Shown: positions 2,300-29,624 of the stretch, one piece after another
Position numbering within the stretch: the first letter of the stretch is position 1
Layout: every line of letters starts with the position of its first letter
Source: a virus
Direction: 5' to 3' (one strand)
IMG/VR virus record: IMGVR_UViG_3300025266_000009
Location: 1 to 43,944 of that record
DNA length: 43,944 nt
The notes under the pieces: model-generated
The model's database searches: none
What the model was told of the DNA's origin: nothing
What the model saw: only the letters and a program-made list of their open reading frames with translations
Translations under genes and position numbers: made by a program

Positions 2300-2360
2300 C
2301 CTAATGAATTTAAAAGAACAGGCTATTGAAGCCAGACAACGGATAGAGGAACAACGATGA
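2124..2360 (+). CDS. Small helical protein overprinted on the portal 3' end
   Basis: A 78-residue frame starting inside the portal gene and sharing 176 bases with it, then running on to a stop that overlaps the ATG of the next gene. The start is well supported: AGGAG at 2113-2117 lies seven bases before ATG 2124. The product looks like an ordinary helical protein (ALKEHLNNLRNLELQGL, then ELGLYRRQGKASSLANLMNL, then EARQRIEEQ), whereas the portal frame over the same DNA is low-complexity Gly/Gln/Pro. I recall similar small helical proteins with an ELYRxQG-type segment directly after portals in other marine podoviruses, but function is unknown; an accessory head role is a guess from position. 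Confidence 0.75.
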   Translation: MLDKEMAGRLGPLVNNPELWAALKEHLNNLRNLELQGLAVETSELGLYRRQGKASSLANLMNLKEQAIEARQRIEEQR

Positions 2361-8413: not shown

Positions 8414-11400
8414 ATGGCAGGCACAAGCTATACAAGACAAAGTACAATTACAGACGGTAACTTGATTACTGCGGCTATTTTTAATAACGAGTATAATCAA
8501 CTTTTAAATGCTTTTGCATATGCAACAAGCAGCACCACAGGCCACCAGCACGATGGCAGCGCTGGTCAAGGCGGCAACATTGCTAAGATTGGCGACCAAG
8601 ACTTTAAAAACAAAGTTGTAATCAGCGCAACAAACAATCGTATTGAATTTTACTCTGAGGTAAGTAACTCGCCTGTTGAGCAGGTACGCATTCAAGACGG
8701 TTTAATTACACCTGTAACAGACAGCGATGTAGACCTCGGTACAACCTCTGTAAGATTTAAAAATGCCTTTGTTGATAGTGTAACTGTAACTAACAACATT
8801 GTTGTGGGTGGAACTGTAGACGGTCGTGATGTTGCAACTGACGGCACAAAGCTCGATGCAATTGAAGCCAGTGCTACAGCAGACCAAACTAACGCAGAAA
8901 TTCGTACAGCCGTTGAAGCCGCTAGTGACTCTAATGTATTCACGGATGCAGACCACAGTAAGCTTAATGCAATTGAAGCTAGTGCAACTGCTGACCAAAC
9001 CGATGCACAGATTCGAGCAGCCGTTGAAGCCGCTACAGATTCAAATGTGTTTACGGATGCTGACCACACAAAGCTCAATGCAATTGAAGCTTCAGCAGAC
9101 GTGACCGATACTGCCAACGTAACAGCCGCAGGCGCACTGATGGACAGCGAGGTTACTAACCTTGCACAAGTTAAAGCCTTTGCTTCTTCTGATTATGCTA
9201 CGGCTGCTCAAGGTGTTTTAGCTGCTGCGGCACTCCCAAAGTCTGGCGGTGCAATGACTGGAGCTATTACAACCAACAGTACCTTTGACGGCGTGGACAT
9301 CGCTACAAGAGATGGCGTTTTAAGCAGCACTACAACTACCGCTAATGCGGCACTGCCTAAAGCCGGTGGTGCTATGACTGGCGCTATTACAACTAACAGT
9401 ACCTTTGATGGTCGTGATGTAGCTACTGACGGTACTAAACTAGACGGTATTGAAGCTAGTGCGACCGCTGACCAAACAGCCGCTGAAATTCGTGCAGCAG
9501 TTGAAGCTGCTACCAACTCTAACGTGTTCACTGACGCTGACCACAGTAAATTAAACGCCCTTGAAGCTTCCGGAGACGTTACAGACACAGCAAACGTAAC
9601 AGCCGCTGGCGCGTTGATGGATTCAGAGCTTACTAACCTAGCACAAGTTAAAGCTTTTGATTCTTCTGACTATGCTACAGCAGCACAGGGTACTCTAGCT
9701 GCTGCGGCGCTCCCTAAGTCGGGCGGCGTTATGACAGGTGCTCTTACTGTCGGTGTAAACGATACAGGATATGATGTTAAGTTCTTTGGCGCTACCGCTG
9801 GTAAATCTCTTCTTTGGGATGAAAGTGCTGATAGCTTAATTGTTACAGGAAGTGACGCAGGAACGGCAGGATTGTTTGTTGAATCTAATACGGCGGGAGT
9901 TGGCGCAAGACTAGACACGATTGACGCAACCCTTTCCAACAATGCGGCTCTTACTAATAGCTTGTTATTAGACAGTGATAATCACGCAATCATTAGAACG
10001 GACAGCAATAACAACGGCTCTGGTGACTTTTATATCACTGAGAGTTCTTCAGACACAGCGCGTATGCGTGTCGCTAATAATGGCGATGTGAGCTTTTATA
10101 ATACTGCGGGCACAACGGCTAAGTTGTTCTGGGATGCGTCTGCGGAGTCTTTGGGTCTGGGTACCACTTCTCCTAGTCGTCCGTTACACATTTCTACCGC
10201 TGTTGATACTGTGGCACTTTTTGAGTCTACAGATTCTAACAGCCGCATTGAGTTAAAAGACGGAGCTGGAAGTTCTTTTGTAGAGAATGGAGGTGGCATA
10301 TTAAGGTTAAAAGCTGATAGTGCAAATGCTGTGGCAAACTCTAGGATTGACTTTACTATAGATAACAGCGAGAAGGCGCGCATAGACACATCAGGCAACC
10401 TGTTGGTGGGTACTACTTCTGTGCAAGGTGCAGGCGGTGTCACTTTAGCTGGTGCAGGCTATGTCTATTCTTCAAGACCAAGTTCCACTGCTATTTACGC
10501 AGACAGAACAGGCTCAGACGGTGCTATTCAAGAGTTCCGCAAAGGCGGCACAACCATAGGTAGTATTGGTACACAAGGCGGTGACAAACTTACTATTGGC
10601 AATGGTGATGTTGGTATTGCTTTCAATCCAAATGCTGACAGTATTTACCCGTGGAACACGGCGACAAATGCTGCTCGCGATGCTAGTGTGGATTTAGGGT
10701 ATTCGAATATTCGCTTCCGCAACGCATACCTATCAGGCAATGCAAATGTTGACGGCACAGTTGAGTTTAATGGTTTGTCTGGCACCGGCGCTGTTACAGT
10801 CACTAACATTCTCGATGAAGATAACATGGCAAGCAACAGTGCTACTGCTCTTGCTACTCAACAGTCTATTAAGGCTTACGTTGACGCTAACGCTGGTGGC
10901 GATGGAGGCGGTGAAACTCTTCAGCAAACTCTAGCAATCGGAAACACCGTAACTACCGACACTAAAATACAGTTCCGTGATACTGGGCTTTACATTAACT
11001 CCAGCGCTGACGGGCAGCTTGACATTGTTGCAGATACTGAGGTACAATTAGCAGCAACCACGTTTGACATTAACGCCGCTGTAGTGACAAACGGTGATGT
11101 TACAGTAGGTGATGATTTAAGTTTATTATCTGACAGTTCTAAATTAAACTTTGGTCTTAATAGTGATGTGTCGCTTACTCATCAACACAATTCGGGTTTG
11201 CTTTTAAACAGCACTAGAAAACTTTATTTTAACGACACAAGCCAATATATCCATGGCTCAGATACTACCAGATTAAAAATGGGAGCTACTAACGAAATTG
11301 AGCTTAACGCTGCTGTTATTGATGTCAATGGTAATTTAGATGTCTCAGGAAATATTATAATCGCAGGTACAGTAGACGGTGTTGATATTGCTACACGAGA

Positions 11401-12232
11401 TGGTGTGTTAACTACTACTACTAACACCGCTAATGCTGCTTTACCTAAAGCTGGTGGTGCAATGACTGGAGCTATTACAACCAACAGTACCTTTGACGGT
11501 CGTGACGTAGCGGCTGATGGTGTAACGGCTGACGCAGCTCTACCTAAAGCTGGTGGTGCAATGACTGGAGCTATTACAACCAACAGTACCTTTGACGGTC
11601 GTGACGTAGCGGCTGATGGTGTAACGGCGGACGCAGCTCTACCTAAAGCTGGCGGTGCTATGACAGGCGCTATTACAACTAACAGCACTTTTGACGGTCG
11701 TGACGTAGCGGCTGATGGTGTAACGGCTGACGCAGCACTGCCCAAGGCTGGTGGTGCAATGACTGGAGCCATTACCACAAATAGTACGTTTGACGGAGTG
11801 GACATTGCTACACGCGATGGTGTGTTGACTACTACTACTAACACCGCTAATGCTGCCTTGCCGAAAGCGGGTGGAACTATGACTGGCGTTGCTGTTTTTG
11901 CAGCAGGCATTACAGAAGACGCTGTAACGCTTACCGGAACCTCTACAACTATTGACATCTCAGCCGCTACTAACTTCGTACACGACCTCACCGGTGCTAC
12001 TACTTACACGTTTAGCAACCCAGCGTCCACAGGCAACGCCTCTAGTTTTACGCTCAAGATTATTCAAGGCTCTACAGCCAGAGCAATCACTTGGCCTTCT
12101 AGTGTTGACTGGGCGGGAGGCACAGCGCCTACGCTAACAGGAACTAATAACGGTGTAGATGTGTTTGTATTCTATACTATTGACGGCGGTACAATCTACT
12201 ACGGCTTCACGGCTGGACAGGCGATGGCATAA
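8414..12232 (+). CDS. Long repetitive tail fibre protein
   Basis: A 1272-residue, Ala/Thr/Asp-rich protein with AGGAG before its ATG. The N-terminal part (GHQHDGSAGQGG near residue 40, then VDLGTTSVRFKNAF) resembles the virion-anchoring regions of marine podovirus fibres. It then repeats modules: DGTKLDAIEASATADQT, VFTDADHSKLNAIEAS, GALMDSELTNLAQVKAF and ALPKAGGAMTGAITTNSTFDG occur two to six times each. Residues about 430-830 hold several strand-rich domains with GSDGAIQEFRKGG and LGYSNIRFRNAYLSG. The last 110 residues form a separate domain (IDISAATNFVHDL, KIIQGSTARAITWPSSVDW). It probably trimerises and binds the host surface. Repeats make length changes by recombination likely. Confidence 0.85.
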   Translation: MAGTSYTRQSTITDGNLITAAIFNNEYNQLLNAFAYATSSTTGHQHDGSAGQGGNIAKIGDQDFKNKVVISATNNRIEFYSEVSNSPVEQVRIQDGLITPVTDSDVDLGTTSVRFKNAFVDSVTVTNNIVVGGTVDGRDVATDGTKLDAIEASATADQTNAEIRTAVEAASDSNVFTDADHSKLNAIEASATADQTDAQIRAAVEAATDSNVFTDADHTKLNAIEASADVTDTANVTAAGALMDSEVTNLAQVKAFASSDYATAAQGVLAAAALPKSGGAMTGAITTNSTFDGVDIATRDGVLSSTTTTANAALPKAGGAMTGAITTNSTFDGRDVATDGTKLDGIEASATADQTAAEIRAAVEAATNSNVFTDADHSKLNALEASGDVTDTANVTAAGALMDSELTNLAQVKAFDSSDYATAAQGTLAAAALPKSGGVMTGALTVGVNDTGYDVKFFGATAGKSLLWDESADSLIVTGSDAGTAGLFVESNTAGVGARLDTIDATLSNNAALTNSLLLDSDNHAIIRTDSNNNGSGDFYITESSSDTARMRVANNGDVSFYNTAGTTAKLFWDASAESLGLGTTSPSRPLHISTAVDTVALFESTDSNSRIELKDGAGSSFVENGGGILRLKADSANAVANSRIDFTIDNSEKARIDTSGNLLVGTTSVQGAGGVTLAGAGYVYSSRPSSTAIYADRTGSDGAIQEFRKGGTTIGSIGTQGGDKLTIGNGDVGIAFNPNADSIYPWNTATNAARDASVDLGYSNIRFRNAYLSGNANVDGTVEFNGLSGTGAVTVTNILDEDNMASNSATALATQQSIKAYVDANAGGDGGGETLQQTLAIGNTVTTDTKIQFRDTGLYINSSADGQLDIVADTEVQLAATTFDINAAVVTNGDVTVGDDLSLLSDSSKLNFGLNSDVSLTHQHNSGLLLNSTRKLYFNDTSQYIHGSDTTRLKMGATNEIELNAAVIDVNGNLDVSGNIIIAGTVDGVDIATRDGVLTTTTNTANAALPKAGGAMTGAITTNSTFDGRDVAADGVTADAALPKAGGAMTGAITTNSTFDGRDVAADGVTADAALPKAGGAMTGAITTNSTFDGRDVAADGVTADAALPKAGGAMTGAITTNSTFDGVDIATRDGVLTTTTNTANAALPKAGGTMTGVAVFAAGITEDAVTLTGTSTTIDISAATNFVHDLTGATTYTFSNPASTGNASSFTLKIIQGSTARAITWPSSVDWAGGTAPTLTGTNNGVDVFVFYTIDGGTIYYGFTAGQAMA
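11435..11731 (+). repeat. Three 99-bp tandem repeats inside the fibre gene
   Basis: Units at 11435-11533, 11534-11632 and 11633-11731 each encode 33 residues beginning AALPKAGGAMTGAITTNSTF and ending DGRDVAADGVTAD. A fourth, diverged unit starts at 11732 and changes to DGVDIATRDGV after the same first part. The first two units are nearly identical at DNA level; the third has several silent changes, so the duplication has had time to drift or arose stepwise. Diverged relatives of the unit occur near 9230-9420. The repeat length is a multiple of three, so the frame is kept. Confidence 0.9.
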
Positions 12233-14731: not shown

Positions 14732-15757
14732 ATGCAGTTCTATATTCTGACCTCTGGAAATTTAAAAGCTCTCAAGCGTCACTTTGACTCTGAGTACAGT
14801 GGGTTTAAGAAAAAAGATGCAGTAGTAATTATTAATAGTTTAAATGAAGACTACATTAAAGAAGCTGTAAGTTACTGTACTAAGAAAAAGATTGAGCACC
14901 ACGTTACCGAAAGCAATGGAACACCGGCAAAGGGCAAGAACTCTTTGCTAGAAGCCTTCCTAGCTTCAGATAACGACTACTGTGTAATGATAGACGGAGA
15001 TGACTTTTTAACTCCTCACGGTGTTTGGATGTATAAACATCTTGCAGGACTAGAGACTCCACCAGATGCAGTATGCTTAATAAACCAAAGGTCTATAAAG
15101 AAGATAAACCATAAGCCGTATTCTGTAAAGCCTTTTACTGTAGACTATGAAAACTTATTAACTTTAGACTACTTGCACATGTTTAATGAACTGCGTGGGT
15201 TGAGCATTCCAAAGGCTACATATTATAATACGCTATACAACAACTACTATACTGAACAACGTAAGTATAGTGAAGGCGATGAAATACATTGTCGTGTTAC
15301 ATGGGTAAGTAAAAAGGCAGCAAGTTTTAAATTCAACGAAGAGTTGATAATCGGCGAAGATACTTTACATATGCTGCGTTTAAAACATGAAGCTTTAGAA
15401 GGACGCTTAAACTTTTACACTAATGACGAGCAGCCAGCGACCTACATATATGACGAGAGAACTCCCGGCACTGTTCAGAAGACATCTAAGTTTGGAATAG
15501 ACTACGAGTGGATGAACGACTACTTAGTTGCTTTGGAGGAGATGGAAAAGAAAAACTATCTCCACGAAAACACAAGGCTTCCTGAGTTGAAGATAGACTA
15601 CCCGAAAGACTATGTGTATGATGACTATGACCTCACTAGCGAATATGCACACAAGGTTAATAACGAATATATAACTTTTCCTAAAAATGCTACTGACACC
15701 GCAGTAAAGAAGTGTCACAAGTTTTTAAAATCTTTAGAAAACCAACAAGCAGCATAG
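14732..15757 (+). CDS. Glycosyltransferase family 2-like protein
   Basis: A 341-residue protein with a GT-A type start: a strand-rich N-terminus (QFYILTSGNLKALKRHF), then KGKNSLLEAFLASDNDYCVMI leading to DGDD at residues 88-91, the likely metal and nucleotide-sugar binding DxD motif. Later parts include EGDEIHCRVTW near residue 180, where an acidic base would be expected, and a C-terminal extension rich in Tyr, Lys and Asp. The substrate cannot be read. It lies inside the virion gene block between fibre accessory genes and internal proteins, so it may modify a virion protein or the host surface. It could also be an inactive structural homologue. The start abuts the previous stop. Confidence 0.7.
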   Translation: MQFYILTSGNLKALKRHFDSEYSGFKKKDAVVIINSLNEDYIKEAVSYCTKKKIEHHVTESNGTPAKGKNSLLEAFLASDNDYCVMIDGDDFLTPHGVWMYKHLAGLETPPDAVCLINQRSIKKINHKPYSVKPFTVDYENLLTLDYLHMFNELRGLSIPKATYYNTLYNNYYTEQRKYSEGDEIHCRVTWVSKKAASFKFNEELIIGEDTLHMLRLKHEALEGRLNFYTNDEQPATYIYDERTPGTVQKTSKFGIDYEWMNDYLVALEEMEKKNYLHENTRLPELKIDYPKDYVYDDYDLTSEYAHKVNNEYITFPKNATDTAVKKCHKFLKSLENQQAA

Positions 15758-18973: not shown

Positions 18974-20206
18974 ATGGGATTTTTTAAAAGCATTAAAAAA
19001 GGTTTTAAAAAGGTTGGCAAGGGCTTCAAGTCTGCGTTTAAGTCTATCGGCAAAGGCATCAGGTCTGCTATGAGTAAGGTGGGTAAATTCATGGGCAAGA
19101 TTGGCTGGGTAGGCCAACTAGCTTTGATGTTTACTCCAGTCGGAGCTATGATGAGTAATATGTTTTCAAGTATAGGTAACGTAGCTGGAGGCATGTTTTC
19201 AAATGTTACAGGAGCTTTAGCTAAAGGCGGTAAGTTTGCTCAAGGCGCTGGTAAGCTTCTTGAGGCCGGTGCAAGCTTTGCAAAAGCAGGACACTCAGCG
19301 TTCAGAACTATTACAGACGGTGTTGCAGCATTTACTAATGAGTTTGTAGGCGCAACATTAAATAAAATTCCGGGGATGGAAAGCCTGTTGCCGGGAATTA
19401 AAGGCAAAGAGTTTGGCAACCTTTGGAGCACTACTGAAAACGCAGTAATGAAAAATGCTAATCTTGTAGTTTCTAACTTTCAAGATGGTCTTAAATCTGG
19501 AGGTCAAATATTCTCAGCCACCCAAGCTAATGTTGTTAATGATTCTCTTGCGCTGACAGGCAAAGGAACTATTCCCGGCAGCAAGGCACAAACAGGCATG
19601 GCTGATAAACCTTCTACGTTTGTTGAAAATACAAGCAAGTCTACATTTAAAACGGGTGACCCAGTTCCGGGTCGAGAGATTCCTTCTACTGGTGAGATTG
19701 TACCTAATACATATGAAGCTGACGTTGAGGGTGACTTTTCTTATGATAAACCAACAAGTCAACAAATGATTAGTGAGTCTGGAGGAATTCAAATAGATAA
19801 ACCTACGTTTGAAAAATCAACCAGCATGTTAGACAAAGTAACCGACTACGGAAGCAAGTTGTACGATAATGCTGTTACTTCGGTGCAGGGAATCCCCGAC
19901 AAGATTTTAGAAACTCCGGGAAAGTTTGTAGACAGCATCGGCAAAAGAGTTGTCAGCGGCGTTGAAACAAGAGCTATGCAGGCTATTGGACTTGAAGACA
20001 AGACGGTGTACAATACAACTCAGTATAATGCTCATGTCCCTGAGGTTAACATGGCCCCAGCAGGGCAATACGCCTCTGCGGACATTAACGACAGAGCCAT
20101 GCAGATTCAAGTTAGCGGCCAGAACCACTACCAGCAGAACCCTTACGGCTATGGCGCTTCTCAATACTTACAACAGATGGCACGGTCTACTGGAGGAACG
20201 GCATAA
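18974..20206 (+). CDS. Internal virion protein with cationic amphipathic N-terminus
   Basis: A 410-residue protein with AAGG before ATG 18974. The first 35 residues are strongly basic with Phe/Ile/Gly spaced as an amphipathic helix (KSIKKGFKKVGKGFKSAFKS). They are followed by a Gly/Ala/Met-rich hydrophobic region (LALMFTPVGAMMSNMFSSIG, residues about 50-70) and a further glycine-rich segment. The C-terminal half is polar and includes TSQQMISESGG and a Gln/Tyr-rich end. The N-terminal pattern looks like a membrane-active peptide, so a part in crossing the inner membrane during DNA ejection is plausible. It sits in the run of internal protein genes and its stop overlaps the next ATG (TAATG). 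Confidence 0.65.
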   Translation: MGFFKSIKKGFKKVGKGFKSAFKSIGKGIRSAMSKVGKFMGKIGWVGQLALMFTPVGAMMSNMFSSIGNVAGGMFSNVTGALAKGGKFAQGAGKLLEAGASFAKAGHSAFRTITDGVAAFTNEFVGATLNKIPGMESLLPGIKGKEFGNLWSTTENAVMKNANLVVSNFQDGLKSGGQIFSATQANVVNDSLALTGKGTIPGSKAQTGMADKPSTFVENTSKSTFKTGDPVPGREIPSTGEIVPNTYEADVEGDFSYDKPTSQQMISESGGIQIDKPTFEKSTSMLDKVTDYGSKLYDNAVTSVQGIPDKILETPGKFVDSIGKRVVSGVETRAMQAIGLEDKTVYNTTQYNAHVPEVNMAPAGQYASADINDRAMQIQVSGQNHYQQNPYGYGASQYLQQMARSTGGTA

Positions 20207-20781
20207 TGGATGAAGAACTATACAACGCAGAGCGGTCTAAAATGGGCAGGTCTATTCCGGGCCAGTCGCTAACTAACGACCCCGCTAACCCAGCTCCTTA
20301 TGAGAAAGCTCCAGAGATTACCAATGTTCACGAAGGCACTATTTACTTGTGGGACTTTATAACTGAAGAAACTGTTTACGCATCTCTGATGACAGGCATT
20401 GATAAAGGCGTACCTGTGATGGCTATTGTACAGGTAATTCTTTTTAACGAGTTTCAGAAAGGCAAGTGGAACCCTGACTTAATGTTGATGTTGGCTGAAC
20501 CCTGTGCATATATTCTTATTGCCCTTGCTGAGCGTTTAGACCTCGACATTATAATCGACAATGACGAAGAAGAGGGGGATGTGTTTGGTGTTGATATGGA
20601 AGAAAAGAAACTAGAAGAACTAAGAAACTCTATAATTCCTCAAGGATTTATTACCGAAGAGATGGCGGGTGAGATGAAAAACCTTCCTACAATGGGAAGT
20701 CTTCTTGAGCCGCAACCAGAAGAAACAACTCCAGAATCTCCAGCGCAACCTAGCCTCATGGCACAACCTGAAGGACAATAA
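20206..20781 (+). CDS. Acidic virion-region protein of unknown function
   Basis: A 191-residue protein with GGAGG nine bases before its ATG. The N-terminal 50 residues are polar. Residues about 55-115 are helical and hydrophobic (ETVYASLMTGIDKGVPVMAI, LMLMLAEPCAYILIALAERL) but not clearly transmembrane. An Asp/Glu run follows (DNDEEEGDVFGVDMEEKKLE), and the tail is Pro/Glu/Gln-rich. It lies between two internal virion protein genes and three bases before the next start. Small acidic partners of this kind occur in the same place in related marine phages. I do not recognise a named family. Confidence 0.6.
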   Translation: MDEELYNAERSKMGRSIPGQSLTNDPANPAPYEKAPEITNVHEGTIYLWDFITEETVYASLMTGIDKGVPVMAIVQVILFNEFQKGKWNPDLMLMLAEPCAYILIALAERLDLDIIIDNDEEEGDVFGVDMEEKKLEELRNSIIPQGFITEEMAGEMKNLPTMGSLLEPQPEETTPESPAQPSLMAQPEGQ

Positions 20782-20783
20782 AC

Positions 20784-22694
20784 ATGGCACAAGATTCAAT
20801 CGCATATGGTGAGAGCCTCTTAGCAGATGTTAGAGAAAGAAATGCTAAAGAACAAAAAAGAGCTGAGTCACGCGCAAAGAAAGATTTTTGGAAGGGCGCT
20901 GCTGTTAAGATAGGGCTTGACGTTGCTCAGGATATAATGGGTCAGCGACAGACGGCTTTCTTAAACAATGAAGAAAACATGGCTAACAAGCTACGAACCA
21001 CTAAAGCTTACAACCAAAGCACGACAATTACAGCGCGTGAAACAGAAGCACAGGCTTTTGACGGAGGCTACGATGCTTATTGGGCAGGTCAAGCAAACAC
21101 AGAAGTTGATGCGTACTTGCAAACTAAATTTGCTCCCGGCACGTATAATCCGTCTGCATACGCCTTGCATAAAAAACAACTTTCTTCTAGGTATGGACAA
21201 GAATTAGCTAAACAGCATAAGGAAGAGTTACAGTATACAAATGATTTTTTATCTGCTGGCGGCAGTAAAGACGCTTACAATGACCTTATTAAAAAATCAA
21301 AAGCAGGTACTCTTACTGGTGCTCTTTCTAATTGGGTTGGAAAAAGTACAGGTGTGCTTGACGCAGATTTGCATAATGATACTATTGCAAACCTTTTAGA
21401 ATCTTCAGACAAGCTAACAGGTTACAACGTAGACAAAAAATCTTATGAGAATGCTTATGCACAAACAGGCGACTCTGCTTTGTCTGTGTTTATAGCTGAG
21501 CAAAATTTAGGCAGGTCTGATTTAGGACAAAAACCGCCGACTATTGGGGAAGTCATAATGGAGGAGGGTTCGTTTGGTGTCAAAACTCCTATGGTTCCTG
21601 TTCAACATTATAATGAAAACGGAAATCCCTCTTACATAGACTTTGTTAGACAAGGAAATGACGGAAGCATTAATTTAGACACCCCTCAAGCTACGTCTTC
21701 AAGGCAGGGCTTTGATTTGCTTTCTTCTCAAATTCGAAGTGCTACAGGCCCAGAAAAAGCATTCTTGGATGCTGGTAACAAGGGCGTAAGAAGCATTGCA
21801 TCCGACAGAAGCGAAACGCTTACCGAAGCACTAGAGCAGAAAGTTAAAGATGCTGGACACAAGTCCACTAGTAAAATAGGTCAGCAAATGCTTCAAGCAG
21901 AATTTGATAATGTTGGAGCAGTTGCAGGCGCAGTTATCTTCCGTGCTAAAGAGGAGCAGTGGGCGCAAGCAGGCAACGCTAAATTAATTGCTGGAGAAAT
22001 GGTTGCTCAGGCATACGAAAACGGAAACGCAGATAGAGCCTTGTCTGGTGCTGGATTAAGAAATCCTTATCATACTATGTTTGCTATTGAGGGGGTAATT
22101 AACGCTCAGAGAATGACGAATACTGACGGAATGGGTAAACTTGGCGGCGCTGATAATGCACTAAACCTTTATGAAGCTTACAGAACAGAAACAGTTGACG
22201 GCAGAGCTAAGATTGATGCTGCACTTAAAGCTAACAATAATTTTGACGGGAAAGTAGGGCCGTTGTTTGGTGAAATACATGAAACTATTAAGTCTCTTAT
22301 TAATAGTAACCCTCCCATAAGAGGCACTGCTGAAACTCTTTATGCGAAGCACACGGAATTATTTCCAAAGAAAATTCCTGACAGCACTTCTAAAGTTCCT
22401 GTTGTTCCTGAAGAAGTTGTTGAAGAAGAAGCTGTTGAAACAGTAATGTCTGTTATTCCTGTCCCTGCTGAATTTAATCGGCGTGAAGAGCGAGCAGTCA
22501 CTCTTCAACGCACCGCTTATAAAGATTTACTTAAAGGAAAAGGGCGTGTTCAAAAATTAGAAGAAAAACTTGGGCGTTTAAAACCAACTGATGCAGTATT
22601 TGACATGCTTAATATTCGTAAAGAAAGAGCTTCAAAAGAATTTCAAAATCTTTACAGTCAGTACATGAAAAACTACGGCCCAGCAGAAGAATAA
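20784..22694 (+). CDS. Internal virion (core/ejection) protein
   Basis: A 636-residue protein with AAGGA before ATG. It begins with a charged helix (ADVRERNAKEQKRAESRAKK) followed by DFWKGAAVKIGLDVAQDIMG, and continues as mixed helices with no membrane span. A C-terminal acidic hinge (PEEVVEEEAVETVMSVIPVP) precedes a basic helical tail (KGKGRVQKLEEKLGRLKP). Length and position, just before a 2000-residue internal protein, match T7 gp15-like core proteins (747 residues). I see no catalytic motif. It would be packed within the head and ejected with DNA. The assignment is from order and composition. Confidence 0.65.
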   Translation: MAQDSIAYGESLLADVRERNAKEQKRAESRAKKDFWKGAAVKIGLDVAQDIMGQRQTAFLNNEENMANKLRTTKAYNQSTTITARETEAQAFDGGYDAYWAGQANTEVDAYLQTKFAPGTYNPSAYALHKKQLSSRYGQELAKQHKEELQYTNDFLSAGGSKDAYNDLIKKSKAGTLTGALSNWVGKSTGVLDADLHNDTIANLLESSDKLTGYNVDKKSYENAYAQTGDSALSVFIAEQNLGRSDLGQKPPTIGEVIMEEGSFGVKTPMVPVQHYNENGNPSYIDFVRQGNDGSINLDTPQATSSRQGFDLLSSQIRSATGPEKAFLDAGNKGVRSIASDRSETLTEALEQKVKDAGHKSTSKIGQQMLQAEFDNVGAVAGAVIFRAKEEQWAQAGNAKLIAGEMVAQAYENGNADRALSGAGLRNPYHTMFAIEGVINAQRMTNTDGMGKLGGADNALNLYEAYRTETVDGRAKIDAALKANNNFDGKVGPLFGEIHETIKSLINSNPPIRGTAETLYAKHTELFPKKIPDSTSKVPVVPEEVVEEEAVETVMSVIPVPAEFNRREERAVTLQRTAYKDLLKGKGRVQKLEEKLGRLKPTDAVFDMLNIRKERASKEFQNLYSQYMKNYGPAEE

Positions 22695-22712: not shown

Positions 22713-25700
22713 ATGTCAAAAACTTTTAGTGATTATCTAAACGAAAGCCCGGATGCTTCTTCTGAATACTTAACAGAGTCTCAAAAACTAAGTAGCGACA
22801 ACTCTATTATACCAGAAGGCTACAGCGTAACAGACTTTGAGGAAGACGCTTCAGTTCAAGTAGCTTTTGATAAAGTTACGGATTACTTATCAGAGCATCG
22901 TGGTTTAGGTTCGGCTTTAATCGACCAAGCAACAATAGGAAAGCAAACTGATATTCCTGAGTTCTTGCGAGATGATGTTGCACGTATCGGCTCACCTTTA
23001 AGCAAAGCAAATATACTTAAAGACGCTCCAGAAGAGGTGAAAGCAGCTTATCGTTTAATGCAAGATAGGTTTAATGCTGCTGAGCTTTCTGGTGCCGGTG
23101 AGTGGGCTTCTGCGGTAGGCGACTACGGCGCTGACGTACTATTCAACCCTGAAACTATCGGTGTACTTGGAAGCTTGTTTGCTACTCCAGCTACTGGCGG
23201 TGTCTCTGCTGTTGCAGGTGTAGCTACACGTAAAGTAGCTCAGCAGGGCGCACGTAGTGTACTAGCCAACGCTATTAGAGCTACTAAGGCTGCACAAACT
23301 GCTAACCCTTATAAGGCTGTAGCGGGCATTGGTGCTATCTACGGTGGCGCAGGCTCTCACGTAGCTCAAGAACTTGACTTAGCTATTGGTCAAAAAGACG
23401 AATATAGTATTATGGAAACTGCTCAAGGCGTAGGCATTGGCGCACTTGCGGGTATGGGTTTGTATGGTGCAGGCTCTAAAATTGGAAACAGATATTTTAG
23501 AGACGCTTCAACTCCTCGCAAAGAACCTTCTAAAGAAGTAGGCGCTGCGCTATACGATGATGCTTTAGATGGTGAATTTATTCCTGCTTCTGGTGGAACT
23601 CTAGTAGATGAAGCGCTTAGGTTAGGAGGCCCAGAAGGGTCAACTGCTAAAGTTGTAGACGGTTCTGATTCTCTTAATGCGGCAGCTAAGAAGTTTGCTG
23701 ATGACTTAGGCGGCGGTGAGAAAACACAGAAAGAAATCTTGCGTATGATTCGAGCCGCAGCAGACTCTGAAGACACGGCAGAAAACGTAACTAATCGAGT
23801 TAAGCAAGGCTTGCACACTATTGCATCTGACCTAAGTGGAAATTTCTTTGGTAAAGCTGCTGGCGTGTTGTCTCCGATTACAGGGTTATCTGGAACTGCT
23901 GCTCAACTACAGAAAAAACTAAGCCATGAGTTTGGAATTAAATATAAAGTCCAAGACAAAATTGTAGAAAAAGACTTGTCTGAAGTACAGCGCGAAGTTA
24001 CCGGGAAATTTAACGACCGCTTCCGAGCTATTGTAGAAGACATTTCATTGCACTCTGCTAAAGGCACATTAGCTGAAGAGATGAATGCAGCTTTAATGCT
24101 ATCTGTTCGTAGCTCTAAGCCTATTAAACATAGCGGTTTTGATTCAGTTACAAACAAAGCAATCAACAAAGCCGCAGCAGGCGTTAAAACTTTATACTCT
24201 GATATGGGTGTACAGCTTGAAAAGATTGGAGTTATTGATAAGCTAGTTGAGAATTACGTTCCACGTATGTGGAGCCGCACAGCTATCGAAAAGAATAAAA
24301 AGGGCTTAATGGATTTATTTGAGTCTAAAGGAAATATGTCTAAAGGAGACGCAAGACGTACCGTTGATTCAATGTTAGACGTACAGAACCAAGTAGACTC
24401 TGGTGGAAGTGGCGGGTATTTCTTCTCATCTAAGCGTAAGCTTAACGACATTGCGGAAGACGCAGACTTTCAAGAGTTTTTAAATGATGACATTTTAGGT
24501 TCTTTACACGCTTATACTTTCCAAGCTGGTAAGTCTATTGCTAAGCATCGTGTACTGGGTGTTAAAAACTTTGATGAATTTAAAGGTTTTTACATTAACC
24601 GCATTCGTAAAGAGCTTGAAGAAAAGGGTGAAACTTTTTCAGCTAAGCAAGAAAAACAAGTTGAAATGCTTTATCGTACAGCTACGGGCGAAGGCTTGGA
24701 GCGTTACGGCAAGACAGCCCAAGACGTTGCGGATACTTACAGCTTTGTAAACCGAGTTTCTATGCTAGGCTTAGCAACACTGTCAAGTTTAACAGAAGTG
24801 TTTTTAAACATTGGTAAGGCTGGTGTACGTAACTCTGCTAAAGGGCTAGGTGAAGCTATAGAGGTGTCATTTAAAAGCCTTACAAAAGACCTTGAGACTA
24901 ACCTAGTAACTAACAACAAGTTGACTGTTACAGAAGCTATGGCAGAGATGCGGCAGTTTAGTATCCACATTGACCAAGCGATGGCCCAAGTAGGAGACAG
25001 GCTTTCTGGAGACGCTTTAGTTAATGAGCGTTTACAAAATGCAAGTAACAAGTTTTTCCGTTTAAACATGCTAGACCAGTGGACTAAGTTTGTTCAAGCT
25101 GCGTCTTTTTCTAGTGGTAAGCACATGATTTCAGAAAACATTGAAAAGCTTGCAGCTAACGGAACTCGTAAGCTTGATAGCAGTATGCAAGTAAGAGCAG
25201 GTGAGTTAGCTGAGCTAGGGATTGATTACAAGAAGGCTATAGATTGGCAGAAAGCGGGCGCTAATACTGATGATGATTTTTATAAGTCTTCAGTGTTGGG
25301 CGGCGTAGCTCGTTATACAAACTCTGTAGTATTACAGCCTACAGCAATGTCTGGACTAAAGCCTTTACTTTACTCTAACCCTAAGACTTCTATTTTGTTT
25401 CAGTTGTTAAGCTATCCTGCTGCGTTTACAAACACCGTACTTAAAGGGGCGGCTAAGTCTTTAACTAAAGCTCCTGTACGCAACGGCGCTAAGTTAATTC
25501 CTGCGGCTTTAATTATGACGGGCATGTCACGCTGGACAAACTATCTAAGAACTAACGGCGAAAGTGAAAGAGGTAAAGACTTAGATGAAGTCTTGTATAA
25601 CTCGGTAGCTCGTTGGGGCGGTAATGGTTTACTGCTTGATAGCTTTAATCGTGCTAAGACTTCTGCCAAATATTCTGGCAGCGCTTTGTCTTATGCTACT

Positions 25701-28700
25701 ATGCCCTTTGGCCCCGCAAGTTCAGATGCTTTAAACTTAATTCAACAGGGAATCATTCCGGTTCTTGGCGGTAAAGTTCCCGTGCTGTCTGGTTCGTATA
25801 TGGGCAAAAGCATTATTGGTGAAAAAGAAGTTACGCATTATCGAAAGAGCCTTCGTAAAGCACAAGAGGATGTGTTCGGCGGCTTAGTCCCAGAGTTTGA
25901 TAAAGAAGTCAAAGCGCCCGGCTATGCTCTTGGTGGCCTTATAAACGTAGGAACTAAAGCAGTTACATCTTTAGGCAATAAAGTAATTTCTAAAATGTCT
26001 AAGAGCACTTTAGGAGCCGAAGAGTATGCTGATACAAACACAGCAATTTTAGAGGCCGCAACAGAAAACTATTTTACTCGTGAAACGCTTAGAGAAACAA
26101 GCGATAACATTGTAGACATAGCATACAGCCTAGAAGATTCAATGCTTTTTAGTCCCTATGATGATATGGATATTGCTTATTTAGACAGTAAAATATTTAC
26201 AGAAATTAGAAAAGATTATAAACCTATTGAAGAGCTTGAAAAACTTCCTGCATGGAAGAAAGCTATGGAAAGTACAACAAAACAAGAAGCTTTAACTAAC
26301 TGGACAGCCGCTCAAAAAGAGATGGGTTTTGATGAAGACCATCGGCATTATCTGGCTGAAGTTCAAGAGCAACTTGAAGAACGTGCAGACTTAGACCCTG
26401 ACGGTGAAATAGACTATGTCGTATCTGAGTCAGTTAATAAATTAAGACAGCTTTACGAAGAAGTTCACATTAAAACAAGCCCTGAAGAAGTAGCTAAGGC
26501 TAGTGAAAAAGGACTTGATGACTCTGAGCTAGACGCACTTCACGATTTTATTTCTATTACTGCTCGCAACAGGTTACCCAAACTGTCCGAGGTTGGTTCA
26601 GACAAGGTAGCTCGAAATGTACTTATTAAGATAGCTGCCGAAGGAGACATTGACCTTAATACTTTTAAGGCTCCAAAGTTGCAAGACAGTCTTGAGGATG
26701 AGTACCCTAAAATGCTGAGCGCTAATGAGCGTTTAGCTGCGAGTGAAGATTATCGTAAATTGTCAACTGAACAAGCCATGATGTTTCGTGCAGAAACAAG
26801 CTTTCAAAAAGCTCAATCGTTTATAGCGTTTTCGTTTGCACGAGAAACAGGCGTACATGTCGGCTCAGAAGGAGCTGCTCACGTAATTGCTATTCGAGGG
26901 CTGCCTGATACTAAAGCTAAGGAAGCTTTAAAAGATGCAGCAGACGCTAAGAGTTTAAATCGTGAAAGTGCTGGAGAAATGTTTAGCGACCCACGGCTCT
27001 TAGAAGAAGAAATGCCTGAAATATCTTTAAGAACTACCGTTGGAGAAGACGATATTCCTGATGATGTTAGAGGATATGGAACGCAAGGAGTTGCAGACGA
27101 GTACGAAGTACAAAACATTAAGCCTATTACAATGAATGCGGGTTACATTGATGTTCGGAACCCTCTGGAAATTAATACTGACCTTGCCGGGTGGGAAGCT
27201 GAAAGAATACTTTCTCCCGGTGGTGGCTGGGACGAGTTTTTTGAACCTGAAATTTCAATGAGAGGAGTAGAAATCACTAAGAAGCATGAAGCAAAGATTA
27301 ATGATTTAAGGGAACGCTCAGCAGAGTTTGAATATTTGTTTGTAGATGCCGATGTACAGGAAAACTATATTTCAATAGTAGACACTTATCGTTCTGACTT
27401 AAAAAGAAACAGCATTAACCGAGAGTTTAGAGAGCTTATAGAAGACTTAGGGTTTGATTCTATTAGATACCTCAATGAAGTAGAGCAGGGGTTTGTAAAT
27501 CAGAGCGAGTATTCTTATATTTTGTTTAGACCTGAGCAGTTTAAGTCTACTACTGCGCGTGTCTTTGACCCTAAAGACCCCAGACACGGAGCTGCTTCTG
27601 GCGGCTATATTGTAAAAGGGGGTGATACGCTAAGCCAAATCTCTTTAGACAAAGGCATTGAAGTTGAAGAGATAGCTAGACTTAACAACATTAAAGACAT
27701 CAATAAAATCTTTGAAGGTCAAGAGTTGAGATTTAGCGATAAGGCTCCAGACATGTTTACAGAACAAGCTGAAGTTGTTGCAACGTCTGAGCCTGTTCCA
27801 GAAATTGAAGTTGCTAAGGAAGGAATAGTAGATAGCGTTTTAAATAAAGTAAGCGGTGCTCAAGCGGATGTTACAGAGAGTATAACAGAAACTCTAGGCG
27901 GTGTCAAGGAAAATATTACAGAAACCTTTGATGAAGCTAAAGAATCTGTGACCAGCGGGGTAAGTAAAACCCTCTCAGCGCTTAGGAAGATGGTGAGCAC
28001 TGACTTTAGTTCTAAGGGACGTACAGCAGAAAACACTGCTGGAACTACAGAAGCTCCTAGACCTACATCATTGATGGGTGATATGACTATGGAGCAAGTG
28101 CGTGAAGCTAACGCTCCAGAAGCTCCTGACTTGTCTGACACTAAACTACCAGACCTTGATTTTAGTTCTGAAGGACGTACAGCAGAAAACATGACTAATG
28201 CTGTAAGTACAGAAGACTCTGAAATAACACTGCCTAAGTTAGATATTGAAGGTATACGAGAAGCTGTGTCAACTCCAGACCCTGACCTATCTAATACGCC
28301 TAGAGTTATACGCAACATACAACGTACCCTTGTAGCCGGAGTTAATGTTATACCTGAAAATGCTTTGTTATATACTCGATACATGTTAGGCAATAAGCTT
28401 GGATTAGACATGCAGGCTTCTGATGTTCGTGTTGAAAAGTTTGGCACTAAACAGCAGGATGTGCTTAGAGCTACAATAGAAAATGCAATAAAAGCAGGTA
28501 GAACATCTGTTAAGTATTCTGATTTTCCAGATATGAAAAGCGGAGAAAGGCCAGACAGATTCTATAAAGCTCAAAGAGAAAGTCAGTCATTAGTAGACTT
28601 GGCCGTTACATCTCTAAAAGACCCTGTGTTTGAAATGTTCACAACTATTGGTGTATTTAATTTTAAAGACTTGGGTGAAGGAAAGTATGAAATTCTTCCT

Positions 28701-28850
28701 GACAAATATGATTTTAGTAAAGCTAAAAGCGGCGGGGAAAATAGAAAAGAAGCTATAGATGCTTATGGTAAACTCACTCACGCTGCTCAAGATATTAGCG
28801 AAGACTCTTCTAAAAGATATACATTTAATGTACGAGGCGTATTAATATGA
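22713..28850 (+). CDS. Giant internal virion/ejection protein with ART-like and LysM domains
   Basis: A 2045-residue protein, the largest in the window. Residues about 145-260 are Gly/Ala-rich and hydrophobic (GVLGSLFATPATGGVSAVAG). Residues 300-1100 are helical and contain SILFQLLSYPAAFTNTVLKG near 890, similar to large podovirus internal proteins of the T7 gp16 type. Residues about 1370-1615 look like an ADP-ribosyltransferase of the phage polyvalent-protein class: ARETGVHVGSEGAAHVI (His1382), AGYIDVRNPLEINTDLAGWE, LIEDLGFDSIRYLNEVE, YSYILFRPEQFKS, then VFDPKDP. A LysM domain follows at about 1631-1676 (YIVKGGDTLSQISLDKG). A linker with a repeated DFSSKGRTAEN segment leads to a C-terminal module of unknown role. 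Confidence 0.8.
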   Translation: MSKTFSDYLNESPDASSEYLTESQKLSSDNSIIPEGYSVTDFEEDASVQVAFDKVTDYLSEHRGLGSALIDQATIGKQTDIPEFLRDDVARIGSPLSKANILKDAPEEVKAAYRLMQDRFNAAELSGAGEWASAVGDYGADVLFNPETIGVLGSLFATPATGGVSAVAGVATRKVAQQGARSVLANAIRATKAAQTANPYKAVAGIGAIYGGAGSHVAQELDLAIGQKDEYSIMETAQGVGIGALAGMGLYGAGSKIGNRYFRDASTPRKEPSKEVGAALYDDALDGEFIPASGGTLVDEALRLGGPEGSTAKVVDGSDSLNAAAKKFADDLGGGEKTQKEILRMIRAAADSEDTAENVTNRVKQGLHTIASDLSGNFFGKAAGVLSPITGLSGTAAQLQKKLSHEFGIKYKVQDKIVEKDLSEVQREVTGKFNDRFRAIVEDISLHSAKGTLAEEMNAALMLSVRSSKPIKHSGFDSVTNKAINKAAAGVKTLYSDMGVQLEKIGVIDKLVENYVPRMWSRTAIEKNKKGLMDLFESKGNMSKGDARRTVDSMLDVQNQVDSGGSGGYFFSSKRKLNDIAEDADFQEFLNDDILGSLHAYTFQAGKSIAKHRVLGVKNFDEFKGFYINRIRKELEEKGETFSAKQEKQVEMLYRTATGEGLERYGKTAQDVADTYSFVNRVSMLGLATLSSLTEVFLNIGKAGVRNSAKGLGEAIEVSFKSLTKDLETNLVTNNKLTVTEAMAEMRQFSIHIDQAMAQVGDRLSGDALVNERLQNASNKFFRLNMLDQWTKFVQAASFSSGKHMISENIEKLAANGTRKLDSSMQVRAGELAELGIDYKKAIDWQKAGANTDDDFYKSSVLGGVARYTNSVVLQPTAMSGLKPLLYSNPKTSILFQLLSYPAAFTNTVLKGAAKSLTKAPVRNGAKLIPAALIMTGMSRWTNYLRTNGESERGKDLDEVLYNSVARWGGNGLLLDSFNRAKTSAKYSGSALSYATMPFGPASSDALNLIQQGIIPVLGGKVPVLSGSYMGKSIIGEKEVTHYRKSLRKAQEDVFGGLVPEFDKEVKAPGYALGGLINVGTKAVTSLGNKVISKMSKSTLGAEEYADTNTAILEAATENYFTRETLRETSDNIVDIAYSLEDSMLFSPYDDMDIAYLDSKIFTEIRKDYKPIEELEKLPAWKKAMESTTKQEALTNWTAAQKEMGFDEDHRHYLAEVQEQLEERADLDPDGEIDYVVSESVNKLRQLYEEVHIKTSPEEVAKASEKGLDDSELDALHDFISITARNRLPKLSEVGSDKVARNVLIKIAAEGDIDLNTFKAPKLQDSLEDEYPKMLSANERLAASEDYRKLSTEQAMMFRAETSFQKAQSFIAFSFARETGVHVGSEGAAHVIAIRGLPDTKAKEALKDAADAKSLNRESAGEMFSDPRLLEEEMPEISLRTTVGEDDIPDDVRGYGTQGVADEYEVQNIKPITMNAGYIDVRNPLEINTDLAGWEAERILSPGGGWDEFFEPEISMRGVEITKKHEAKINDLRERSAEFEYLFVDADVQENYISIVDTYRSDLKRNSINREFRELIEDLGFDSIRYLNEVEQGFVNQSEYSYILFRPEQFKSTTARVFDPKDPRHGAASGGYIVKGGDTLSQISLDKGIEVEEIARLNNIKDINKIFEGQELRFSDKAPDMFTEQAEVVATSEPVPEIEVAKEGIVDSVLNKVSGAQADVTESITETLGGVKENITETFDEAKESVTSGVSKTLSALRKMVSTDFSSKGRTAENTAGTTEAPRPTSLMGDMTMEQVREANAPEAPDLSDTKLPDLDFSSEGRTAENMTNAVSTEDSEITLPKLDIEGIREAVSTPDPDLSNTPRVIRNIQRTLVAGVNVIPENALLYTRYMLGNKLGLDMQASDVRVEKFGTKQQDVLRATIENAIKAGRTSVKYSDFPDMKSGERPDRFYKAQRESQSLVDLAVTSLKDPVFEMFTTIGVFNFKDLGEGKYEILPDKYDFSKAKSGGENRKEAIDAYGKLTHAAQDISEDSSKRYTFNVRGVLI

Positions 28851-29209
28851 GTGAATTCAAATACTTTAAACTAGAAGACTTTAATTGCCAAGAAACTGGC
28901 GAGAACGAAATGTCAAGGGACTTTATACACAAGCTTGACGAACTGCGGGAGGCGTGTGGCTTTCCGTTTATTATAACGAGCGGTTACAGAAGTCCAAATC
29001 ACTCCATTGAAAAACGTAAGGAGAAAGCAGGAACACATGGTCAAGGTATTGCATCAGACATTAAAATTAGTTCGGCACAACAGAGGTACACGATTGTTAA
29101 GGAAGCTATCAAGATGGGATTTGGAGGCATTGGAATACACAGTGTCTTTGTCCATATTGATAACCGCTCTCGGAGTGGTGATAAACCTCCTGTAATGTGG
29201 TTGTATTGA
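28847..29209 (+). CDS. Endolysin, peptidase M15 family
   Basis: A 120-residue enzyme that should cut the peptide cross-links of peptidoglycan at lysis. It has the M15 zinc site: ITSGYRSP at residues 43-50, THGQGIASDI with His64 and Asp71, and FVHIDNR with His103. Together His64, Asp71 and His103 are the expected metal ligands, and Asp105 is near the catalytic position. There is no signal peptide, so it needs a holin, and a three-TM holin gene follows 11 bases later. The length is typical for the short M15_3 type. The ATG overlaps the stop of the giant internal protein gene by four bases. Confidence 0.88.
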   Translation: MSEFKYFKLEDFNCQETGENEMSRDFIHKLDELREACGFPFIITSGYRSPNHSIEKRKEKAGTHGQGIASDIKISSAQQRYTIVKEAIKMGFGGIGIHSVFVHIDNRSRSGDKPPVMWLY

Positions 29210-29219
29210 GGGGTAGTAT

Positions 29220-29624
29220 ATGAGTATTTTAAGTTCACTGATTGGCCCTGTTACTGGGCTGCTTGATAAGTTTATAGAGGATAAAGACGCTAAGAATGCA
29301 ATTGCTTTCCAGATTTCAACGATGGCAGAGAAACACGCACAGGAACTTGCGAAGGGTCAGCTTGAAGTCAATAAGGTTGAGGCGGCACACAAGAACATGT
29401 TTGTTGCTGGCTGGCGGCCTGCTGTGGGTTGGGTATGCGTGGCTGGCATGGCGGGTAACTTCATTGTTATCCCGATGGCTAATTTTGCGTTGGCTCTATC
29501 CGATTCTGACATCGTCATACCGCTGGTAGCTTTGTCTGAAATGATGCCGGTGTTGATGGGCATGTTAGGCTTAGGAGCTATGCGTACAGTAGAAAAATCT
29601 AAAGGCGTACAGAGGGAAAAGTAA
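29220..29624 (+). CDS. Holin, three-TM (GTA_holin-like) family
   Basis: A 134-residue membrane protein directly after the endolysin gene with GAGGGG before its ATG. The N-terminal 55 residues are helical and charged (DKFIEDKDAKNAIAFQISTM, EKHAQELAKGQLEVNK). A WRPAVGWVCVAGMAGNF segment begins the membrane part and is followed by further hydrophobic spans around residues 78-92 and 98-121. The WRP-x-x-GW motif is typical of the 3TM holin family also found in gene transfer agents. It should form the inner membrane holes that release the endolysin. The tail is basic. Confidence 0.82.
   Translation: MSILSSLIGPVTGLLDKFIEDKDAKNAIAFQISTMAEKHAQELAKGQLEVNKVEAAHKNMFVAGWRPAVGWVCVAGMAGNFIVIPMANFALALSDSDIVIPLVALSEMMPVLMGMLGLGAMRTVEKSKGVQREK

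What the first reader, a model, noticed from the sequence alone, without database searches (positions are those of the whole stretch)
22713..28850. Ejected giant protein with an ADP-ribosyltransferase-like region next to LysM
Residues about 1370-1676 of the internal protein combine an ART pattern of the polyvalent-protein kind (HVG, GFDSIRYLN, SYILFRPEQFKS, FDP) with a LysM peptidoglycan-binding domain. A protein packed in the head and ejected first could modify host targets on entry, as phage T4 does with its Alt enzyme, and could anchor in the cell wall on the way.
Basis: partly seen in the sequence, partly recalled or inferred. Interest (0 to 1): 0.65.

Follow-up and report, generated by a model that had tools for sequence, protein, structure and literature searches.

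The report
ART-fold domain in phage ejection protein
A very large protein that a marine phage probably carries inside its head and pushes into the host cell contains a domain with the fold of ADP-ribosylating enzymes, with an unusual but strictly conserved set of candidate active-site residues, next to a cell-wall-binding LysM domain; this is an uncommon version of a known idea (phages injecting host-modifying enzymes), and it has not been shown to be active.

Summary
ORF 22713-28850 (+, 2045 aa) carries a LysM domain (residues 1632-1673, PF01476, E 4.6e-10) directly after a domain at about 1344-1628 that belongs to the ADP-ribosyltransferase (ART) superfamily by fold. A model built with 59 relatives (pLDDT 83, pTM 0.84) has AcrIF11, PARP2/3/4, MbcT and the cyanophage A4 pre-ejectosome protein among its best solved neighbours; Z is modest (3.4-6.7) and Foldseek alone is not significant. 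Pfam ART-PolyVal matches mainly the C-terminal half of 34 of 59 relatives, below its cut-off, and not the window itself.

The motif reading needs correction. HVG is strand 2, not strand 1; strand 1 is MMFRAE with R1359. R1359, E1378, H1382, D1582, N1588, E1591 and S1601 are invariant, but the canonical H-Y-D/E or R-S-E triads are not met.

The domain is a separable module: in one set of relatives it is a separate gene directly behind the core gene, in others it is missing, once with a phage lysozyme instead. The giant sits third in a T7 gp14-15-16-like trio, so ejection is plausible but unproven. Best reading: an injected, probably catalytic ART of a divergent clade. New variant of a known kind.

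The parts
22713..28850 (+). giant protein, 2045 aa, gp16-like internal/ejection protein candidate
   Evidence: ORF; phrog_7348 1979 bits over residues 27-1631, phrog_6958 and phrog_684 'virion structural protein' over residues 639-919
22713..25892 (+). conserved core, residues 1-1060 (87% identical in nearest relatives)
   Evidence: residues about 501-1033 were searched and give distant matches (24-29% identity) to LUZ24-type and Vibrio podovirus particle proteins
25893..26741 (+). variable linker, residues 1061-1343 (about 50% identical in nearest relatives); the gene is split within this region in some relatives
26742..27596 (+). ART-fold domain, residues 1344-1628
   Evidence: AF2 model pLDDT 83.3, pTM 0.84; structural neighbours; PF18760 in 34 of 59 relatives below cut-off
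26787..26789 (+). R1359, in predicted strand 1 (MMFRAE): candidate NAD-binding residue, invariant wherever aligned (57/57)
26856..26858 (+). H1382, in predicted strand 2 (GVHVGS): candidate NAD-binding residue, 59/59
27456..27485 (+). D1582 to E1591 (DSIRYLNEVE), strand 1583-1587 and following loop: candidate acidic residues D1582 and E1591, both 59/59
   Evidence: D/Y/N retained in 12 of 12 sequences that were not retrieved through this motif
27513..27548 (+). SYILFRPEQFKS, strand at 1600-1604; S1601 at the front edge, where PARPs carry the catalytic Glu (placement by eye), 59/59
   Evidence: PARP motif table in PMC7955679
27606..27731 (+). LysM domain, residues 1632-1673
   Evidence: PF01476 E 4.6e-10, 39.7 bits
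18974..20206 (+). 410-aa structural-module gene upstream of the trio, no family match
20206..20781 (+). 191-aa gene, gp14-sized, first of the putative ejection trio
   Evidence: size and order; kept in relatives
20784..22694 (+). 636-aa gene, gp15-sized, second of the trio
   Evidence: size and order; kept in relatives
28847..29209 (+). M15-type peptidase (endolysin), overlaps the giant's stop by 4 bases
   Evidence: PF08291 38.2 bits; phrog_894
29220..29624 (+). holin
   Evidence: phrog_3427 118.7 bits

Best explanation
The giant protein is the large inner-membrane-ring-type ejection protein (in the place of T7 gp16) of a short-tailed marine phage. Its C-terminal third carries an optional effector cassette: a divergent ADP-ribosyltransferase-fold domain followed by LysM. 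After adsorption the protein is threaded into the host; if it behaves like T7 gp16, whose C-terminal part is thought to reach the cytoplasm, the ART domain meets NAD+ there and uses R1359 and H1382 to hold NAD+ and an acidic residue (D1582 or E1591) or the substrate itself to promote transfer of ADP-ribose to a host molecule, helping the takeover or blocking a defence. Shown by computation: the fold, the invariant residues, the modular presence, absence and gene split, the LysM. Inferred: packaging, ejection, NAD+ use, transfer, target.
For: AF2 model with 59 relatives pLDDT 83.3, pTM 0.84. In the VIA-align second look the rows at Z 3.4 or more are, apart from two designed helical bundles, AcrIF11 (6kyf, Z 5.2), MbcT (6fkg, 4.9), PARP3, PARP4 and PARP2 (4.6-4.9), a RES toxin (6gw6, 3.4), all ART-superfamily, and on top 9k3a_B, cyanophage A4 pre-ejectosome (Z 6.7, 142 residues), which is exactly A4L gp27 and carries by eye an H-Y-D-type ART motif (YHGT, GTYFS, GVDAL, about residues 1424-1590). 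BFVD: 17 hits with E <= 1e-3, several viral matches in the list named ART-PolyVal. PF18760 in 34/59 relatives, best 7.2e-7. Invariant R1359, E1378, H1382, D1582, N1588, E1591, S1601, not explained by how the sequences were found. pN/pS about 0.34 in the domain. Ejection role: 191/636/2045-aa gene trio matches the order and size rank of T7 gp14/gp15/gp16 (196/747/1318 aa; PMC8954989), core similar to LUZ24-type particle proteins. Module behaviour: separate ART gene directly behind the core gene in one group of relatives; giants without the ART, one group ending in a lysozyme.
Against: No NAD+-binding or activity data. The triad is not canonical: Arg in strand 1, His in strand 2 and Ser where PARPs have the catalytic Glu. 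Z values are below 8, the range the tool calls common, and Foldseek against PDB has no significant hit. Profile-profile comparison with a handful of canonical ARTs gave nothing. LysM next door suggests periplasmic contact, where there is no NAD+. No ADP-ribosylhydrolase was found in 17 related records. No virion proteomics.
Confidence: 0.5

Rival explanations
1. The domain keeps the ART fold and a ligand pocket but is an NAD+ hydrolase or phosphorylase (like MbcT/RES toxins) and not a macromolecule-modifying transferase: it would drain host NAD+ or remove an NAD+-derived defence signal on entry.
For: MbcT scores as well as the PARPs (Z 4.9) and a RES toxin appears (Z 3.4); strand-1 Arg; no target-recognition part identified.
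Against: RES and MbcT catalytic residues were not mapped onto this domain; draining NAD+ at entry would harm the phage; the long helical insert (about 1496-1580) might serve target binding.
Confidence: 0.15
2. The domain is a catalytically dead ART fold used as a structural or binding part of the ejectosome, for instance to pack against DNA or other core proteins in the head.
For: Non-canonical triad, Ser at the PARP Glu position; the best structural neighbour is a part of an assembled ejectosome core (9k3a); the module is dispensable (missing in 5 of 19 core-retrieved loci).
Against: Seven polar residues, mostly around the expected cleft, are invariant across sequences down to about 25-30% identity, the pattern of a functional site; giants without the domain exist, so it is not required for assembly.
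Confidence: 0.25
3. The C-terminal region works only on the cell wall: LysM, with lysozyme in some relatives and an M15 peptidase gene next door, marks a peptidoglycan-crossing module, and the ART-like part is a spacer or a wall-related domain.
For: LysM in window and many relatives; the L031 giant ends in Phage_lysozyme (PF00959 E 1.4e-6) and L033 aligns with it there; adjacent M15 peptidase; PHROG label 'endolysin'.
Against: Fold and conserved residues are ART-like, not hydrolase-like; several relatives keep the ART-like domain without LysM behind it in the alignment (L024, L025, L027, L035, L038), and none of the comparisons points to a wall enzyme in 1344-1628.
Confidence: 0.1

Closest known systems
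ART domains of phage polyvalent proteins (ART-PolyVal, PF18760; prototype Roseovarius Plymouth podovirus 1 vRNAP, CBX87992; Iyer et al. 2017, PMC5512222)
   Same: ART fold, mainly the C-terminal half matched by the Pfam profile in 34 of 59 relatives, inside a giant virion-type phage protein of marine podoviruses
   Different: R in strand 1 and H in strand 2 in place of H and Y; long helical insert; below the Pfam cut-off in all members whose score was printed; no vRNAP and no metallopeptidase domain found
Cyanophage A4 (Anabaena phage A-4L) gp27, pre-ejectosome protein, PDB 9k3a chain B
   Same: best solved structural neighbour; giant ejectosome protein with a C-terminal ART-like domain
   Different: carries a canonical-looking H-Y-D motif (YHGT, GTYFS, GVDAL) and no detectable sequence similarity to the window domain; Pfam does not detect its ART
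T4 Alt
   Same: the idea: a head-packaged, injected ART that acts at once
   Different: free-standing packaged protein of a myovirus; no Alt-type family matched here; function not tested
AcrIF11 (PDB 6kyf)
   Same: ART fold, phage-encoded anti-host enzyme; structural neighbour Z 5.2
   Different: small free protein, not virion-borne; important acidic residue D115 reported (PMC12421852)
T7 gp16 ejection protein
   Same: third and largest protein of a trio ordered small, middle, large; cell-wall module in the same chain
   Different: T7 has an N-terminal transglycosylase; here LysM (or lysozyme) and the ART lie C-terminal; no sequence homology to T7 gp16 was shown

Membership tests
ART superfamily (fold) | split six-strand ART fold | tested here: met
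   Model with strands and helices in the expected order; apart from two designed helical bundles all neighbours at Z 3.4-6.7 are ART-superfamily or the A4 protein with an ART motif. Moderate strength: Z under 8, Foldseek PDB not significant.
ART superfamily (fold) | conserved residues on strands 1 and 2 and at strand 5 for NAD+ and catalysis | tested here: inconclusive
   Invariant R1359, H1382, D1582, E1591, S1601, but no known triad class (H-H-h, H-Y-[EDQ], R-[ST]-E; PMC7955679) fits all three positions.
ART-PolyVal (PF18760) | score above the curated cut-off of 31.2 bits | tested here: not met
   Window: no match. Best listed relative 30.0 bits (L080), mostly the C-terminal half of the profile.
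ART-PolyVal (PF18760) | His (strand 1), Tyr (strand 2), Asp (strand 5) active site | tested here: not met
   Arg and His at the first two places; third place unclear.
LysM domain (PF01476) | score above the curated cut-off of 20.9 bits | tested here: met
   39.7 bits, residues 1632-1673.
Polyvalent proteins | several unrelated effector domains in one large injected protein | tested here: inconclusive
   ART fold plus LysM in the window; relatives up to 2634 aa with further unassigned domains. Only LysM passes a curated cut-off in the window; injection not testable.
T4 Alt family | Alt-type sequence family | tested here: not met
   No Alt or VIP2-type Pfam or PHROG match at E up to 1.
T4 Alt family | packaged, injected and ADP-ribosylates host proteins | not testable with these tools
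   needs virion proteomics and enzymology
Podovirus ejection (gp16-like) protein | third and largest gene of a small-middle-large trio in the structural module | tested here: met
   191/636/2045 aa consecutive genes against T7 196/747/1318 (PMC8954989)
Podovirus ejection (gp16-like) protein | present in the virion core and ejected | not testable with these tools
   indirect only: core similarity to annotated LUZ24-type particle proteins

The most novel reading that the evidence does not exclude
A new active-site class of the ART superfamily (Arg on strand 1, His on strand 2, and an acid supplied from the D1582 to E1591 segment or by the substrate) carried on the cytoplasmic part of podovirus ejectosomes, so that the DNA-delivery machine itself modifies the host while it is still threading the genome, with gene-split forms delivering the same enzyme as a separate protein.
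Probability: 0.3. Interest if true: 0.75.

Novelty: new variant of a known kind. Interest (0 to 1): 0.52.

Why it matters
Injected ARTs have been predicted mostly from sequence resemblance. Here a divergent clade that falls below the Pfam cut-off is defined by fold and by strictly conserved residues, in uncultured marine phages whose head genes (portal, capsid) are closest to the HMO-2011/pelagiphage type. Natural presence, absence and gene-split versions of the same ejection protein give ready comparisons for testing what an ejected ART does. The link to the solved cyanophage A4 pre-ejectosome suggests that ART domains may be a recurring part of podovirus ejection machines.

Tried and rejected
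First fold with 6 close relatives: useless (pLDDT 42). Sequence searches of the PDB with alignments A1, A6 and A8: no ART. Foldseek against PDB: nothing significant. hhalign of A8 against a few canonical ARTs (RPP1 group, L011 group, A4): no alignment, so the strand-1/strand-2 correspondence rests on the model and not on profile alignment; the PF18760 match in L080 begins after the HVG motif and does not support it either. tblastn of the whole protein and of the ART region against named phages: no match (near records may be left out there). Bacterial and archaeal genomes: no relative in two scans, each limited to one or two short patterns. HMO-2011 and HTVC115P, relatives in head genes, lack this domain. 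ADP-ribosylhydrolase PF03747 absent from 17 related records. LLCFC1, Perilipin, DUF5638 and other weak Pfam hits judged chance.
Full report
What was checked. The ORF is exactly where the finding puts it: 22713-28850, + strand, 2045 aa. The quoted motifs are present at HVG 1382, GFDSIRYLN 1580, SYILFRPEQFKS 1601, FDP 1618. LysM is solid at 1632-1673 (PF01476, 39.7 bits). No Pfam family matches residues 1341-1640 of the window protein itself even at E = 1, so the ART claim could not be settled by a standard scan. The window is an IMG/VR virus record of 43,944 bases.

Surroundings. The window has a structural module on + (portal-type 104-2299, major head protein 4959-5933, tail genes, fibre 8414-12232) followed by 410-, 191-, 636- and 2045-aa genes, an M15 peptidase and a holin, and on - a ribonucleotide reductase, DNA polymerase, primase/helicase and Cas4-type exonuclease. 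Portal and capsid are closest to Pelagibacter phage HTVC115P (61% and 56%) and then to other pelagiphages, HMO-2011 and Roseobacter CRP phages. HMO-2011 and HTVC115P do not carry this ART domain. The order and sizes 191/636/2045 parallel T7 gp14/gp15/gp16 (196/747/1318 aa; PMC8954989). The protein scores 1979 bits with phrog_7348 and, over residues 639-919, weakly with virion structural protein families; about residues 501-1033, searched apart, match LUZ24-type and Vibrio podovirus particle proteins at 24-29% identity. An internal, ejected protein is therefore likely, but this is inference.

Relatives. Close relatives of the region came from four, then five contigs (alignments A1, A2). A search with the core of the giant protein brought 20 loci. 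Of the 19 in which the C-terminal part could be read (L040 is truncated), 14 have the ART-like domain and 5 lack it (L031, L033, L034, L037, L039); because several loci come from the same or nearly identical viruses, these are not independent counts. L031, one of two related giants (L031, L033) without the ART, ends in a Phage_lysozyme domain (PF00959, E 1.4e-6). A profile of 12 ART-like regions (A6) then brought 139 stretches that encode a relative, of which 80 loci were kept.

Module behaviour. In a set of these loci the ART is not fused to the core: a core ORF of about 1130-1195 aa ends and a separate ORF of 620-1240 aa that carries the ART begins within -26 to +10 bases (ten loci inspected, L080 and L083 being near-identical, and L093's core cut by the contig end). 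On a tree of 60 core sequences, four states (fused 42, split 13, lysozyme 2, none 3) need 6 changes. That tree is a quick one with long branches, and most rows were collected because they have the ART, so it shows clustering of states, not rates. LysM follows the ART in the window and many relatives, is separated from it by a long insert in L030 and L060, and is not seen behind it in the alignment in L024, L025, L027, L035 and L038.

Fold. A first prediction with 6 sequences failed (pLDDT 42). With 59 sequences (A8) residues 1344-1628 gave pLDDT 83.3 and pTM 0.84: strand 1357-1361 with R1359, strand 1381-1384 with H1382, a helix, strands 1473-1479 and 1484-1487, a long helical insert, strand 1583-1587 behind D1582, strand 1600-1604 and a last short strand; residues about 1441-1467 are not modelled with confidence. 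Foldseek against PDB gave nothing significant. The VIA-align second look at Foldseek's own candidates ranked 9k3a_B, cyanophage A4 pre-ejectosome, first (Z 6.7, 142 residues), then AcrIF11, MbcT, PARP3, PARP4, PARP2 and lower a RES toxin (Z 3.4), with the other rows mainly helical proteins that cover the helical insert. Z below 8 is a range the tool warns about; the argument is the consistency of the list, not any one Z. Against viral models 17 hits reach E <= 1e-3, and several rows of the list are named ART-PolyVal. Independently, Pfam ART-PolyVal matches 34 of 59 members (best E 7.2e-7), mainly its positions about 47-136, the C-terminal half, and below the cut-off in every case whose score was printed.

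The A4 link. 9k3a_B is identical to the product of A4L_27 of Anabaena phage A-4L (1717 aa). Read by eye its residues 1424-1600 hold YHGT, GTYFSKSSQAASDNA and GVDAL followed by TTLVINPDAV, an H-Y-D pattern as described for polyvalent-protein ARTs (PMC5512222). Pfam does not detect it and a profile of the window family does not match it, so the tie is by fold only, and VIA reports only the outer limits of the aligned range.

Active site. Published ART classes are H-H-h, H-Y-[EDQ] and R-[ST]-E for strands 1, 2 and 5 (PMC7955679). Here strand 1 has R1359 (57 of 57 aligned), strand 2 has H1382 (59/59), and the front edge of the SYILF strand, where PARPs have the catalytic Glu, has S1601 (59/59; this last correspondence is by eye). 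E1378, D1582, Y1586, N1588 and E1591 are also invariant. The collection was made with patterns that include parts of the last two motifs; 12 sequences were matched only through YI[LA]FxPxQF and still keep D, Y and N in 12 of 12, and R1359, E1378, H1382 and E1591 were in no pattern. So conservation is real, but the mechanism is not a copy of a known triad. An acid from D1582 or E1591, or substrate-assisted catalysis (known for ARTs lacking the acid; PMC8883491), would be needed.

Selection. Between the window and its nearest relatives pN/pS is about 0.13 in the core, 0.34-0.35 in the ART, 0.19-0.20 in LysM, and 0.49-0.59 in the linker and C-terminal tail (synonymous sites are near saturation).

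Mechanism judged most likely. A gp16-like ejection protein delivers the ART. In T7 the C-terminal part of gp16 is presumed to reach the cytoplasm (PMC8954989), where NAD+ is. LysM so close to the ART is a complication: either LysM acts during passage, or it stays in the wall and holds the ART at the membrane. Steps shown: fold, residues, modularity. Steps inferred: packaging, ejection, catalysis, target. Overall confidence 0.5 for an injected catalytic ART, 0.25 for a dead ART fold in the ejectosome, 0.15 for an NAD+-consuming enzyme, 0.1 for a purely wall-related role.

Novelty. Injected ARTs in giant phage proteins are known in concept (PMC5512222; PMC9503650). New here, as far as the held papers and databases show, are the divergent R/H clade, its spread in uncultured phages, and its fused, split and missing forms in one ejection protein. 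The one held paper that joins HMO-2011-type phages with ADP-ribosylation mentions an ADP-ribosyl hydrolase gene only (PMC9038755).

Noticed in passing
L011 100-2052 (-), L122-L130; window homolog 2357-3982: In sister phages (for instance the record of L005) the gene next to the portal has an extra N-terminal domain of about 190 aa that matches ART-PolyVal (29.4 bits; 31.8 bits, over the cut-off, in G018). The window's homolog lacks it. A second, separate ART-like domain in the same group of phages.
   Followed up: partly
window 2357-3982; also 27597-27614: Repeated short xGG motifs (KEGGEV, FAEGGRI, NMGGSL, KYMGGSI) in the portal-adjacent protein, and a conserved GG right after the ART (60 and 52 of 62 relatives). 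Possibly processing or flexible-hinge sites; unexplained.
   Followed up: no
L024, L025, L027, L030, L034, L037 giant proteins, after the ART position: A shared domain with ELxWTG and TKEEVxxFF-like motifs follows the ART (or stands without it), resembling by eye domains of large polyvalent proteins; Pfam gave no match in L024 and L034.
   Followed up: no
L121 (A4L gp27) about residues 1300-1390: A ParB-like stretch seems to precede the ART domain of the cyanophage A4 pre-ejectosome protein; seen by eye only.
   Followed up: no
window 14732-15757 (+): Weak glycosyltransferase family 2 match (22.8 bits against 23.3) within the structural region.
   Followed up: no
L114, L116 separate ART genes: The separate ART proteins also carry a weak DUF6973 match in their C-terminal part.
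   Followed up: no
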